Below the pieces are notes generated by a model. It was not told where the DNA came from and did no database searches. It was given only the letters and a program-made list of their open reading frames with translations. The position numbers were made by a program, and so were the translations under genes. Positions 10,059 to 58,876 of a DNA stretch of 64,000 nucleotides are shown one piece after another; within the stretch, counting starts at the first letter, position 1; the number at the start of each line of letters is the position of its first letter. Origin of the DNA: Ruminococcus sp. (GTDB taxonomy: Bacteria > Bacillota > Clostridia > Oscillospirales > Ruminococcaceae); NCBI GenBank assembly GCA_017470905.1, contig JAFUXL010000003.1:1-64000 (forward strand), written 5' to 3'.

Positions 10059-10113
10059 AAAAACATCTCCTTTTCGTACTCATATCTGTTTTTGCGGAGG
10101 GGAGAAAATATCT

Positions 10114-10231
10114 GAATGAGCATTTTAAAGTAATACACAAGAATTTTTATATTTTGTCTCTGTTTTCCCGTCAAAGGCGAGAGGGTAGCATTTCTTTTTA
10201 TTATCACGGACAGTTTTAAATTTGCTCAGTA
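10114..10231 (-). repeat. Leader element family A, copy upstream of the dockerin hydrolase
   Basis: On the minus strand it reads GAGCAAATTTAAAAC, CGTGATAATAAAAAG, a weak central hairpin, ACAAAATATAAAAATT, then TTTAAAATGCTCATTC. It has the same order and sense as copies at 32246, 33105 and 58712. Here the centre is degenerate. It ends 56 nt before the TTG start. Confidence 0.75.
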
Positions 10232-10265
10232 ACAGTTTTTATTTTCTTAATCGATAACATTGTAT

Positions 10266-10775: not shown

Positions 10776-10834
10776 AAATTTTTATATTTTTTTGTTTCCA
10801 CCGCTGTGTGCAGGGGAAACATCGCTTTTTATTT
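10776..10834 (-). repeat. Leader element family A, partial copy upstream of the AraC-type gene
   Basis: On the minus strand: AATAAAAAGCGATGTTTCC, hairpin GTTTCC...GGAAAC with a short GC stem, then AAAAAAATATAAAAATTTAT. Same sense as the gene. It ends 25 nt before the ATG. The outer arms are missing. Confidence 0.65.
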
Positions 10835-32226: not shown

Positions 32227-32232
32227 TATAAT
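32227..32232 (+). promoter_or_regulatory. Possible -10 box before the spoVM leader element
   Basis: TATAAT 13 nt before the family-A element, the same spacing as at the VanZ and DUF4317 copies. No good -35 hexamer is seen 17 nt upstream, so this is weak. Confidence 0.35.
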
Positions 32233-32245
32233 ATATTATAATCTA

Positions 32246-32382
32246 TGATTGAGCAAAATTAAAATTTTTCGTGATAATATATAAAAAATTATAACGAAAA
32301 GCAATGTTCTCCCCCACCTGCGGTGGGGGAGAACAAAGAAAAAATATAAAAATTTTGTGAATTATTTTGAGACGCTCATTTA
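32246..32382 (+). repeat. Leader element family A, complete copy upstream of spoVM
   Basis: Starts TGATTGAGCAAAATTAAAAT and TTTTTCGTGATAAT; centre GTTCTCCCCCACC-TGC-GGTGGGGGAGAAC (perfect 13-bp stem, 32307-32335); then AACAAAGAAAAAATATAAAA, GTGAATTATTTTG and GCTCATTTA. The two ends can pair (GAGC...GCTC). It ends 28 nt before the spoVM start. Confidence 0.85.
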
Positions 32383-32410
32383 TAGTTATAATTTCAAAGG
32401 GGGGATACAT

Positions 32411-32500
32411 ACGAAAATAGTCGTGATAAGAAGTCCCAGGATACTTTCGGGTATACTGAGGGCGATTTTCGGAATAAAAAAAGAACATCAGGAGCAATGA
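32411..32500 (+). CDS. spoVM: Stage V sporulation protein SpoVM (tiny membrane-curvature peptide)
   Basis: A 29-codon frame reading x-KIVVIRSPRILSGILRAIF then GIKKEHQEQ. It aligns residue for residue with Bacillus SpoVM (MKFYTIKLPKFLGGIVRAML...): shared Lys2, Ile6, Pro9, Leu12, Gly14, Ile15, Arg17, Ala18 and Gly21. In Bacilli and Clostridia spoVM follows thiN, exactly as here. SpoVM is an amphipathic helix that marks the curved forespore membrane and recruits SpoIVA. A strong AAAGGGGGG (32397-32405) is placed for a start at 32411, but that codon is ACG, not ATG. The next possible start, GTG 32423, would remove four residues. Confidence 0.85.
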   Translation, partial: TKIVVIRSPRILSGILRAIFGIKKEHQEQ

Positions 32501-32533
32501 AAAAAGGAGCTGTCACTGCGGCAGCTCCTTTTT
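32501..32533. terminator. Terminator shared by spoVM and the VanZ gene
   Basis: Stem AAAAAGGAGCTG/CAGCTCCTTTTT (32501-32512 with 32522-32533). It begins right after the spoVM stop and contains the VanZ stop codon, serving two convergent genes. Confidence 0.88.
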
Positions 32534-33016
32534 GAATATCCTGCAAAATAATCTGCATATCAGGGCGGATATTATTATACCCACACAGCTTCCGAGGGTA
32601 TCTATTATAATATCCCTGAACTCCCCCGAACGTCCTGCAACGAAAAGCTGGTGCATTTCGTCCGTGCAGGCATAGAGAAAGCACAAATCAAGCGATATTA
32701 CGGAATTAAGGCTAAGAAATCTGCCCTTTCCGACACCGAGACACATGAAAAATCCGAGCAGTGCATATATGCTGAAATGCGCAAGCTTGCGGACGATATG
32801 AGTTACAGTGCCGATAATTTCCTTTTGTTCGGTCAATGTGCGGCTTTCGAGGTCGGGAAAGAATACCGAAACTATGTAATTCGCAATGCCCTTGCTTGTC
32901 ATGGAGGACTGCGCTGAATTTTCGTTTGAAAAGAGGAATATCGTTATCATCACAGAAAGAGACAACAGTAAAAATATTTTCCTCATAAGCGTAAGATTAT
33001 TGAAATATTCTGCCAT
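32513..33016 (-). CDS. VanZ-like membrane protein
   Basis: About 167 residues with four membrane helices and the VanZ pattern RKLAHFSIYALLGF, CTDEMHQLFVAGRSGEFRDI and IDTLGS. VanZ homologues are associated with low-level teicoplanin resistance in enterococci; most chromosomal copies have no tested role. AAGGAG favours ATG 33016 over TTG 33022. Leader carries a family-A element behind a good promoter. Confidence 0.88.
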   Translation of the reverse strand: MAEYFNNLTLMRKIFLLLSLSVMITIFLFSNENSAQSSMTSKGIANYIVSVFFPDLESRTLTEQKEIIGTVTHIVRKLAHFSIYALLGFFMCLGVGKGRFLSLNSVISLDLCFLYACTDEMHQLFVAGRSGEFRDIIIDTLGSCVGIIISALICRLFCRIFKKELPQ

Positions 33017-33104
33017 AGACAACTCCTTTTTATCTCCCGTAATTCAGATATTAATTTTTATTTTTTAACAATCTCCGCCGCAGCGGAGATCATGATTTTA
33101 ACCA

Positions 33105-33241
33105 TAAATGAGCATTTTTAATAATGCACAAAAATTTTTATATTTTGTCTTTGTTCCCCCTCGCCGTAGGCGGGGGGAACGTTGTTTTTTAATTATGCTT
33201 TTTTCTGAATTATCACGAAAAATTTTAAATTTGCTCAATCA
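33105..33241 (-). repeat. Leader element family A, complete copy upstream of the VanZ gene
   Basis: Minus-strand reading: TGATTGAGCAAATTTAAAAT, TTTTTCGTGATAATTC, hairpin GTTCCCCCCGCC-TAC-GGCGAGGGGGAAC (one mismatch), AAAGACAAAATATAAAAATT, TTGTGCATTATT, AAAATGCTCATTTA. The ends pair. It starts 14 nt after the -10 box and ends 88 nt before the ATG. Confidence 0.85.
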
Positions 33242-33255
33242 CAGATTTCAATATA

Positions 33256-34754: not shown

Positions 34755-34783
34755 CAATTCATAATGCATAATTCATAATTATT
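34755..34783. repeat. Family C AT-rich repeat (ATAATTC / GCATAATTCATAATT)
   Basis: AATTCATAATGCATAATTC and similar; overlapping semi-palindromic 7-10-mers that also occur at 42367, 43137, 43349, 53564, 62937 and 63022. Confidence 0.7.
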
Positions 34784-34790
34784 AAGAGAA

Positions 34791-34880
34791 AATTTTTGCC
34801 CTTGTGCCGGGAGTGAACGCAGCGTAGCGAAGTGAACGAAAGCACAAGGCTGCAAAGGCAAAAATTGACGATTTTAAATT
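34791..34880 (+). repeat. Family B nested-hairpin repeat, copy 1
   Basis: Outer stem AATTTTTGCC/GGCAAAAATT (34791-34800 with 34857-34866), inner stem CTTGTGC/GCACAAG (34801-34807 with 34842-34848), centre with the direct repeat GTGAACG, tail TTGACGATTTTAAAT. Copy 2 at 37404 has different but still perfectly paired stems. Confidence 0.75.
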
Positions 34881-34891
34881 GATTTTAAATA

Positions 34892-47839: not shown

Positions 47840-48273
47840 AGCTAATATTCAAAAAAATACGTAAAAACGCAGTAATACCCTCCCGTGCCACGTCCGCAAG
47901 TGCCGGGCTTGATATATCCGCCTGTCTTGATGAACCCGTAACGCTCGAAAGCGGCGAAATAAAAATGATACCCACGGGACTTAAGGCGCAGACGGACTGT
48001 GACGATGTTGCACTGCTCATATATCCCCGTTCGGGGCTTTCGACAAAATACGGAGTAAGCCTTGCGAATTGCGTGGGAGTGGTTGACAGCGACTACAGGG
48101 GGGAATGGTTCATTCCGCTTATCAATCACGGAAAAGAGCCTTTCACCGTGACGAACGGAATGCGGATAGCACAGCTTATCCCCACAAGAGTACTCTTTCC
48201 CGAAACGGAGGTCAGCGAAAGCCTTGACGATACGGAGAGGGGAAAAGGCGGTTTCGGCTCTTCGGGAATATAA
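47836..48273 (+). CDS. dut: dUTP diphosphatase
   Basis: 145 residues with all five dUTPase motifs: ASAGLDISA, PRSGLSTKYG, GVVDSDYRGE, RIAQLI and the C-terminal arm RGKGGFGSSG. Hydrolyses dUTP to dUMP. Overlaps the U32 gene by 4 nt. Confidence 0.96.
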   Translation: MKLIFKKIRKNAVIPSRATSASAGLDISACLDEPVTLESGEIKMIPTGLKAQTDCDDVALLIYPRSGLSTKYGVSLANCVGVVDSDYRGEWFIPLINHGKEPFTVTNGMRIAQLIPTRVLFPETEVSESLDDTERGKGGFGSSGI

Positions 48274-48353
48274 TAAAAACATCGTTCCTCCGCCAACGGC
48301 GGAGGAAAAAAAGAAAAAACATAAAATTTTTATTATTTCAAAATGCCCGTTTA
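48271..48353 (+). repeat. Leader element family A, partial copy upstream of the DUF4321 gene
   Basis: TAATAAAAACATCG, hairpin TTCCTCCGCC-AAC-GGCGGAGGAA (48285-48307), AAAAAAAGAAAAAACATAAA, TTATTTCAAAATGCCCGTTTA. The 5' arm is missing. It ends 25 nt before the ATG of the next gene, same sense. Confidence 0.7.
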
Positions 48354-48378
48354 CGGATACTTCATTAAGGAGAAGAAA

Positions 48379-48893: not shown

Positions 48894-49910
48894 ATGTTTA
48901 CAAAAGATATCGGTATAGACCTCGGTACTGCAAATACCCTCATATATATGCGCGGAAAGGGTATAATAATAAGAGAACCCTCGGTTGTTGCCGTAAATAC
49001 CAGAACCGACAAGACAAGATATGTCGGTACTGAGGCTAAGGAAGTCATCGGCAGAACCCCCGGTTCGATTGTCGCCGTAAGACCGCTTAAGGACGGAGTT
49101 ATCGCAGATTTTGACATAGCAACCACTCTTCTTCAGGAATTTATAAAAAAAGCACTGCGCGGAAGATTTCTGACCAAGGCGAATGTCATAATATGCATTC
49201 CCTCCGGCGTTACGGCAGTCGAAAGACGTGCCGTGCGTGAAGCCTGCAAAAAGGCAGGGGCGAATAATGTCCTTATCATCGAAGAACCGATGGCGGCTGC
49301 CATTGGTGCAGGACTGCCTACCAATGCCCCCGAAGGAAGCATGATTGTTGACATAGGCGGCGGAACCAGCGAGGTCGCCGTAATCTCTCTCGGAGGAATA
49401 GTCGCCGCAAGGTCTATAAGATGTGCAGGCGACGAATTTGATGCGTCAATTATAAATTATATCAAGAAAAAATATAACCTCCTCATCGGAGAGAGAACCG
49501 CCGAGAATATCAAGATAGAAATCGGCTCGGCATTTCCGGGAAGCAAGGAGGAAAGCCTCGAAATCAAGGGAAGAAATCTCCTCAACGGTCTGCCCGAAAA
49601 TGTCAATGTCAGCTCTGCGGAAATCAGAGACGCACTTGTCGAGCCGCTTGCAAGGGTGATTGATGCGATAAAAAGCACCCTTGAAGAAACTCCCCCTGAG
49701 CTTTCGGCGGATATAATCGACCACGGCATTACCCTTGCAGGCGGCGGCGCACTGCTGAGAGGTCTTGACAGACTTATAAACCGTGAAACGGGTATGCCCG
49801 TGTATATTGCGGAATATCCCCTCGACTGCGTTGCGGAGGGTACGGGGAAAATTCTCGAAAATATAAACGACTATCAGGACGCTCTCATGGAAAACGTAAG
49901 ATATTATTGA
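48894..49910 (+). CDS. mreB: Rod-shape actin homologue MreB
   Basis: 338 residues. Phosphate loop DIGIDLGTANTLIYM, CIPSGVTAVERRA, EEPMAAAIGAGLP, IVDIGGGTSEVAVISLGG and LAGGGALLRGL. Forms membrane filaments guiding side-wall synthesis. First gene of mreB-mreC-mreD-PBP2. Confidence 0.97.
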   Translation: MFTKDIGIDLGTANTLIYMRGKGIIIREPSVVAVNTRTDKTRYVGTEAKEVIGRTPGSIVAVRPLKDGVIADFDIATTLLQEFIKKALRGRFLTKANVIICIPSGVTAVERRAVREACKKAGANNVLIIEEPMAAAIGAGLPTNAPEGSMIVDIGGGTSEVAVISLGGIVAARSIRCAGDEFDASIINYIKKKYNLLIGERTAENIKIEIGSAFPGSKEESLEIKGRNLLNGLPENVNVSSAEIRDALVEPLARVIDAIKSTLEETPPELSADIIDHGITLAGGGALLRGLDRLINRETGMPVYIAEYPLDCVAEGTGKILENINDYQDALMENVRYY

Positions 49911-49921
49911 TACTATTATCA

Positions 49922-49998
49922 CTGTTCCCCCCATCTCAGATGGGGGATAACAGACAAAATATAAGAGTTTTTGTGCATTATTTCAAAATGCTCATTTA
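49922..49998 (+). repeat. Leader element family A, 3' half, between mreB and mreC
   Basis: CTGTTCCCCCCATC-TCA-GATGGGGGATAACAG hairpin (49922-49953), then ACAAAATATAAGAG, TTGTGCATTATTTC and AAAATGCTCATTTA. The 5' arm present in promoter-linked copies is absent from this operon-internal copy. It ends 21 nt before mreC. Confidence 0.75.
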
Positions 49999-50019
49999 TA
50001 TATTAATTTTCACGGGGGT

Positions 50020-58570: not shown

Positions 58571-58716
58571 ATGATTAAAAAAAGCATTGTCGGCGAAATC
58601 AAAAATCGAAACACAGCCCGAACCCGAAGAAATCACGGAAATCATACAGCCCGAACTTGAAATAATCCTTGACTTTCAGGAGCTTTTCTGTTATACTCAT
58701 AATTGCAGTTATGATT
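58571..58716 (+). pseudogene. Possible frameshifted small gene
   Basis: A promoter, a ribosome site and ATG 58571 open a frame (MIKKSIVGEIK...) that soon becomes Arg-rich and stops at about 58660. One frame over, IETQPEPEEITEIIQPELEI follows, which looks more like a natural Pro/Glu-rich linker. I infer a decayed gene, but chance is possible; the end of the second frame overlaps the next promoter. Confidence 0.3.
58669..58697 (+). promoter_or_regulatory. Promoter of the DUF4317 gene
   Basis: TTGACT (58669-58674), 17 nt, TATACT (58692-58697). The family-A element starts 14 nt later, the same spacing as at the VanZ gene. Confidence 0.72.
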
Positions 58717-58843
58717 AAGCAAATTTAAAATTTTTTGGCAATATACGAAAAAGTATAATAAAAAGCACCGTTCCCCCACCAGCGGTGGGGGGGAACAAAG
58801 AAAAATATAAAAATCTTTTTCATTATTTTAAAATGCTCATTTG
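58712..58843 (+). repeat. Leader element family A, complete copy upstream of the DUF4317 gene
   Basis: TGATTAAGCAAATTTAAAAT; small extra hairpin TATAC-GAAAAA-GTATA; centre GTTCCCCCACC-AGC-GGTGGGGGGGAAC; AACAAAGAAAAATATAAAAA; CATTATTTTAAAATGCTCAT. It ends 33 nt before the ATG. Confidence 0.85.
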
Positions 58844-58876
58844 TAGCTGCAATATTTTTTACAAAGAGGTATTTTT

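What the first reader, a model, noticed from the sequence alone, without database searches (positions are those of the whole stretch)
32246..33241. A recurrent ~120-140-nt structured leader element (family A), always in sense just upstream of a start codon
Four near-complete copies (10114-10231 minus, 32246-32382 plus, 33105-33241 minus, 58712-58843 plus) and three partial ones (10776-10834 minus, 48271-48353 plus, 49922-49998 plus) share the order TGATTGAGCAAATTTAAAAT, CGTGATAAT, GC hairpin with a 3-nt loop, ACAAAGAAAAATATAAAAA, TTATTTTAAAATGCTCATTTA. The two ends are complementary (GAGCA/TGCTC plus TTTAAAAT/ATTTTAAA). The central stem varies with compensation (CCACC/GGTGG, CCGCC/GGCGG, CCATC/GATGG, TCCGCC/GGCGGA). 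All seven are in the same sense as the next gene and end 21-88 nt before its start (spoVM, VanZ, dockerin hydrolase, AraC, DUF4321, mreC, DUF4317). At VanZ and DUF4317 the element starts exactly 14 nt after the -10 box, and 13 nt at spoVM, so it would begin the mRNA. The operon-internal copies lack the 5' arm. This suggests an undescribed structured 5' leader shared by envelope/sporulation genes, or a MITE that spreads as an RNA leader.
Basis: partly seen in the sequence, partly recalled or inferred. Interest (0 to 1): 0.8.

Follow-up and report, generated by a model that had tools for sequence, protein, structure and literature searches.

The report
Species-specific mobile DNA with one-way terminator
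A rumen Ruminococcus genome carries well over a hundred copies of a jumping DNA element about 143 bases long that sits between genes, mostly pointing the same way as the next gene, with a likely transcription stop signal on its reverse strand; it is a new family of a known kind of mobile DNA rather than a new regulatory RNA.

Summary
The copies are real. Genome-wide they are a mobile repeat, not a conserved riboregulator. The element, CTATGATTGAGCA...TGCTCATTTATAG (~143 bp), has 13-bp imperfect terminal inverted repeats, 7-9 bp AT-rich target duplications (exact 7-mers at 7 of 34 full-ended copies; 0.08 expected) and one copy nested in another. Of 14 copies compared with the sister species, 11 were informative; all 11 sites lack it there. 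The 2.04-Mb draft genome gave 157 matches; 59 congeners gave only marginal hits in 7. It is a MITE (non-autonomous transposon), found here in one species. "Always sense, upstream of a start" holds in this window but is a bias genome-wide: between co-directional genes 38 sense, 7 antisense; 32 copies lie between divergent and 10 between convergent genes. Likely cause: a U-tract follows the GC hairpin on the antisense strand (96 of 132 copies) but rarely on the sense strand (10 of 133), so a copy read backwards would terminate transcription. Paired hairpin changes are weak evidence for RNA function. Transposase and transcription starts remain undetermined.

The parts
32243..32385 (+). Full-length copy, CTATGATTGAGCA...ATTTATAG, between thiamin pyrophosphokinase gene and spoVM; sense to spoVM
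   Evidence: model match 32242-32386, 102.8 bits; site empty in sister species G025
32236..32242 (+). Left target-site duplication TTATAAT
   Evidence: sequence; group test
32386..32392 (+). Right target-site duplication TTATAAT
   Evidence: sequence; group test
32227..32232 (+). Predicted -10 box TATAAT, 10 nt before the element
   Evidence: score 7.6; promoter not proven
32305..32335 (-). Antisense intrinsic-terminator-like hairpin (14 pairs) followed by TTGCTTTTCG
33102..33244 (-). Full-length copy, sense to the VanZ-family gene
   Evidence: model match 33102-33245, 115.6 bits; G025 lacks it
33095..33101 (+). Flank ATTTTAA, target-duplication half (6 of 7 identical to 33245-33251)
   Evidence: sequence
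33245..33251 (+). Flank ATTTCAA, other target-duplication half
   Evidence: sequence
33157..33177 (+). Antisense terminator-like hairpin of this copy, followed by AACGTTGTTT
10112..10235 (-). Near-full copy, sense to dockerin/ricin-B peptidoglycan hydrolase gene
   Evidence: model match 10111-10236, 77.6 bits
10774..10864 (-). Partial copy upstream of AraC-type HTH gene
   Evidence: 33.6 bits
43084..43140 (-).
   Evidence: 30.1 bits; G025 lacks it
48267..48355 (+). Short form (5' arm missing), between two co-directional genes, upstream of DUF4321 gene
   Evidence: 49 bits; G025 site empty
49901..50001 (+). Short form upstream of mreC
   Evidence: 55.6 bits; G025 site empty
58709..58845 (+). 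Full-length copy upstream of DUF4317 gene, -10-like TATACT 11 nt before it
   Evidence: 98 bits

Best explanation
[quoted passage not shown] Shown: terminal inverted repeats, 7-9 bp target duplications, a nested insertion, sites empty in the sister species, and high copy number. Shown in sequence: the central GC hairpin is followed by a U-tract mainly on the antisense strand. Inferred: that strand works as an intrinsic terminator, so insertions that a gene's transcript would read backwards are removed by selection; this leaves sense copies in leaders and between operon genes, and antisense copies behind genes. Inferred: where a copy sits just downstream of a promoter it becomes the first part of the host mRNA and shields it from antisense transcription.
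For: Mobility: exact 7-bp target duplications at 7 of 34 full-ended copies against 0.08 in 1,000 re-pairings, 8-bp with <=1 mismatch at 11 against 0.73; copy C8:101782 nested in another copy. 14 copies in three 20-kb spans compared with G025: 11 informative, 11 empty, 7 of them with <=10 nt between the flanking alignments (junctions of five). Copy number: 157 matches. Restriction: 59 congeners gave hits in 7, best 27.4 bits; 124 congeners gave at most 2 end-like 16-mers against 29 in the own genome. Polarity: 38 sense to 7 antisense, p 3e-6; 35 to 7 with one copy per gap, p 1.5e-5; between divergent genes the 3' end is nearer the sense gene in 20 of 28 gaps, p 0.04. Not replication strand: 44 copies with and 43 against the GC-skew strand. 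Terminator asymmetry: at least 5 T in 10 nt after the stem in 96 of 132 antisense and 10 of 133 sense cases, and an independent scan calls the antisense terminator in both central copies. All 7 antisense copies lie >=101 nt from the next start; 27 of 38 sense copies lie closer than 100 nt.
Against: No transposase or autonomous partner with these ends was found. Terminator activity and transcription starts are predictions. Antisense copies also sit in longer gaps, and their distance to the preceding stop does not differ from that of sense copies (p 0.42). The TIRs are imperfect. 7 antisense copies is a small number; above 60 bits the bias is 12 to 3 (p 0.035). 52 of 136 hairpins have weak stems, where the asymmetry is smaller (25 of 50 against 9 of 49).
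Confidence: 0.85

Rival explanations
1. A cis-regulatory RNA leader: the folded transcript of the element (paired ends plus hairpin) senses something or recruits a protein and coordinates a regulon of envelope and sporulation genes.
For: Sense bias; a minority of copies begin just after predicted promoters; stable folds for three of four copies (z -9.99, -6.10, -3.93; the fourth -0.79); some paired changes (9 pairs against 6.1 shuffled, 26 of 500 shuffles reach it).
Against: Found in one species only, with orthologous sites empty in its sister; target duplications; antisense and convergent copies; no Rfam match over the element; compensation weak and open to a DNA-level explanation.
Confidence: 0.06
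2. A mobile promoter: the 5' arm carries TTGAGC-18 nt-GATAAT, an outward promoter, and the sense bias reflects selection for driving the next gene. This can hold together with the MITE reading.
For: The hexamers are found in both central copies by an independent scan and are somewhat better conserved than the rest of the 5' arm (0.863 and 0.893 against 0.837, printed before that script stopped with an error). Correia elements carry promoters (review PMC10969869, passages seen).
Against: Match is 9 of 12 only; 8 such sites in the stretch against 5.4 expected. AT-rich columns elsewhere are equally conserved. 47 of 146 copies lack the arm.
Confidence: 0.2
3. Polarity and start-site placement come from targeting, not selection: the transposase inserts in a fixed direction into promoter DNA opened by RNA polymerase.
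For: Peak just after the -10 at the 5' end and none at the 3' end (score >=8: 7 of 41 against 1 of 54, control 2.1%); the duplicated target would overlap the melted region at such copies.
Against: Only about one in five to one in eight copies; RBS-preserving selection could also confine insertions to the start region. A simpler scan also showed some sites at the 3' end (8 of 95 copies in the 9-17 nt bins).
Confidence: 0.25

Closest known systems
[quoted passage not shown]
   Same: Short AT-rich intergenic repeat of a Firmicute, nearly confined to one species group, resembling an intrinsic terminator (PMC3049150, passages seen)
   Different: SPRITE has AAAA/TTTT ends and no demonstrated target duplication, and is enriched between convergent genes; here there are 13-bp ends, target duplications, and mainly sense copies before genes with the terminator on the antisense strand
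RUP and BOX elements of Streptococcus pneumoniae
   Same: MITE-like, TIRs and target duplications, species-restricted, clustered and nested copies (passages)
   Different: No sequence comparison was made; both are reported over-represented between convergent genes, which is not the main place here
Correia elements of Neisseria
   Same: MITEs mostly just upstream of genes, one case immediately downstream of a promoter, transcribed hairpins (passages)
   Different: No comparison of sequence made; no antisense terminator polarity mentioned in the passages seen
ERIC, REP/BIME palindromes
   Same: Intergenic palindromic repeats with orientation-dependent effects on transcripts (passages)
   Different: Not tested by sequence; REP elements are linked to RAYT transposases, not looked for here

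Membership tests
MITE | Short (<about 600 bp), no coding capacity | tested here: met
   about 143 bp; match lengths
MITE | Terminal inverted repeats | tested here: met
   CTATGATTGAGCA / CTATAAATGAGCA, 11 of 13; 46 ends against 0 control
MITE | Target-site duplication | tested here: met
   7 of 34 exact 7-mers against 0.08 expected
MITE | Empty sites in relatives | tested here: met
   11 of 11 informative sites, 14 looked at
MITE | High copy number, star-like divergence | tested here: met
   157 matches; 52 near-full copies 12.9% from consensus on average
MITE | Autonomous partner with the same ends | tested here: inconclusive
   ends looked for in own genome and in 124 congeners; contexts of a few extra ends read; genome 74% complete; no transposase family search was run
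Known Rfam RNA family | Reaches a family's gathering score | tested here: not met
   no match over any copy in the window
Conserved cis-regulatory RNA | Present at orthologous sites in related species | tested here: not met
Intrinsic terminator (antisense strand) | GC stem followed at once by a U-tract | tested here: met
   96 of 132 copies, 71 of 82 with strong stems
Intrinsic terminator (antisense strand) | Stops RNA polymerase | not testable with these tools
   needs an assay

The most novel reading that the evidence does not exclude
A transposon that integrates in a fixed direction into the DNA bubble opened by RNA polymerase at promoters, so that its non-autonomous copy becomes the 5' end of host mRNAs and carries a one-way terminator that protects the new leader from antisense transcription.
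Probability: 0.2. Interest if true: 0.7.

Novelty: new member of a known kind. Interest (0 to 1): 0.4.

Why it matters
It shows how a one-way terminator inside a mobile repeat can by itself produce a strong 'always sense, just before a gene' pattern that looks like a riboregulator, a trap for RNA discovery in single genomes. It also gives a system with well over a hundred natural insertions in which to ask whether transposons use promoter opening as a target cue, and it adds some hundred predicted sense leaders and antisense terminators to one species' transcriptome.

Tried and rejected
Rfam at gathering and at E<=5: nothing over the copies. RNAalifold on 24 copies gave the central stem and a small 3' hairpin but not the paired ends, so the element was not modelled as a structured RNA; the model R1 is sequence only. 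Exact patterns in genome contigs and viral contigs: 0, the own genome being left out there. Weak hits in relatives: 4 congeners (25-37 nt; three were read, the fourth only in part, and none looks like the element), 7 congeners at 22.0-27.4 bits, 3 hits at 18.0-27.5 bits in the second close relative UBA4383: taken as chance or unrelated hairpins, not followed further. Replication direction as the cause of polarity: rejected, with rough skew data. Autonomous element: extra ends were read in part; none bounded a transposase in what was read. Papers: searches gave no description of this family or of a MITE with this polarity; only PMC10969869, PMC3049150 and PMC4596501 were opened, as passages found by terms, none read whole.

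One search had dropped 52 of 136 hairpins with weak stems; one search counts them. One search counted several copies per gap; one search counts one per gap. The comparison of own against crossed stem arms (7.68 against 6.21 pairs of 8) is biased because each stem was picked for pairing. In one search two matches cut by stretch ends were given the whole-genome limits. One search stopped with an error after printing its column frequencies; redid the rest.

Full report
What is there. Aligned copies (24 from the own genome) define an element of about 143 bp: CTATGATTGAGCAAATTTAAAATTTTTCGTGATAATATACAAAAAAGTATAATAAAAAACAATG, a GC hairpin, then AACAAAGACAAAATATAAAAATTTTTGTGCATTATTTTAAAATGCTCATTTATAG. 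The ends are imperfect inverted repeats (11 of 13).

It is mobile DNA. A sequence model finds 157 matches in the own genome, with 150 of 2,663 first-look candidates scored. Around 34 full-ended copies, exact 7-bp duplications occur at 7 against 0.08 expected from 1,000 re-pairings, and 8-bp ones with at most one mismatch at 11 against 0.73. One copy is inserted in another with GACAAAAT on both sides. Three 20-kb spans holding 14 copies of at least 25 bits were compared with G025: 11 were informative and all 11 lack the element; at 7 the flanking alignments meet within 10 nt (window 32242, 48267, 49901; C32 92015, 99221, 103488; C4 165307), at 4 a shorter unaligned gap remains (33102, 43084, C32 95832, C4 178887); 3 could not be judged (C4 162524, 171466, 177619). 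Alignments at five window sites show the junctions (the VanZ one is poor on the VanZ side). The short forms before mreC and the DUF4321 gene are absent there too.

It is restricted. Blast in 59 relatives gave short weak hits in 4 congeners; the model gave 22.0-27.4 bits in 7 of 59 congeners; one end motif occurs 29 times here and at most twice in any of 124 congeners; the two nearest relatives give nothing above 27.5 bits. The 52 near-full copies lie on average 12.9% (2.1 to 28.9%) from the consensus and 21.0% from each other, so the family is not a very recent burst.

Direction. In four contigs (770 kb, 660 genes from a simple caller of my own, 87 copies) 38 copies lie sense and 7 antisense between co-directional genes (p 3e-6), 32 between divergent and 10 between convergent genes, none inside a called gene. 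One copy per gap gives 35 to 7 (p 1.5e-5). At 60 bits and above it is 12 to 3 (p 0.035). In divergent gaps the 3' end is nearer the gene it points to in 20 of 28 (p 0.04). GC skew does not explain it (44 with, 43 against). The likely reason is that the hairpin is followed by a U-tract on the antisense strand in 96 of 132 copies but on the sense strand in 10 of 133; in the 84 strong stems 71 of 82 against 1 of 84. A separate scan names the antisense terminator in both central copies. All 7 antisense copies are at least 101 nt from the next start, against 11 of 38 sense copies at 100 nt or more (p 0.0007), though they also sit in longer gaps and their distance to the preceding stop is not special. 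That selection removes wrong-way copies is inference.

Leader. Leaving these three out, 9 of 72 copies with intact 5' ends start 7-14 nt after a predicted promoter (score >=8) against 1.81 expected from intergenic positions read toward the next gene (p 8e-5). Other bins are near expectation, and the 3' ends show little (1 of 54), although a cruder scan found 8 of 95 there. So a minority probably starts an mRNA. No start is mapped, and the promoter matrix was written from recall.

Structure. The central stem keeps pairing while its letters vary, and in a fixed alignment 9 pairs have changes on both sides against 6.1 by shuffling (26 of 500 reach it; covariation score 10 of 500). Loops occur as TGC-like in 21 and as their reverse complements in 24 stems, as expected if hairpins invert or repair themselves at the DNA level. 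Paired changes are therefore not proof of an RNA function. RNAalifold did not find the paired ends.

Known kinds. The nearest described repeats are SPRITE, RUP and BOX of the pneumococcus and Correia elements (passages). Each feature has a parallel: terminator-like hairpin (SPRITE), place before genes (Correia). The combination of antisense terminator with sense bias was not in the passages or listings I saw; most subscription papers are not in the library. I file it as a new MITE family.

Noticed in passing
window 34776-34882: A different hairpin repeat (AAAATTTTTGCC...GGCAAAAATTGACG) that is high-copy in the sister species G025: most of the 71 matches and many are to it, with head-to-tail arrays of about 96 nt at G025:C68:75104-75392.
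   Followed up: partly
window 32411-32500 (+): spoVM seems to lack an ATG/GTG/TTG where the known SpoVM start aligns; an ACG codon stands there (alignment to Bacillus SpoVM from recall), and the sister species has the same ACG.
   Followed up: no
L091, L092, L093, L095, C8:28698-28920, C1:36497-36697: Tandem pairs: a copy followed 1-4 nt later by a second one that in most pairs lacks the 5' arm.
   Followed up: no
C4:232087-232244 and C32:121691-121826: Hairpin loops of two copies hold an extra palindrome around TCCCTTTAGGGA / TCCCTAAAGGGA, as if another small element had entered the loop.
   Followed up: no
for example C4:251127 upstream, C4:267130 upstream, window 34759-34785: AT-rich runs of CATAATTCATAATGCATAATT often stand beside the copies and beside the other repeat; probably a further repeat family.
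   Followed up: no
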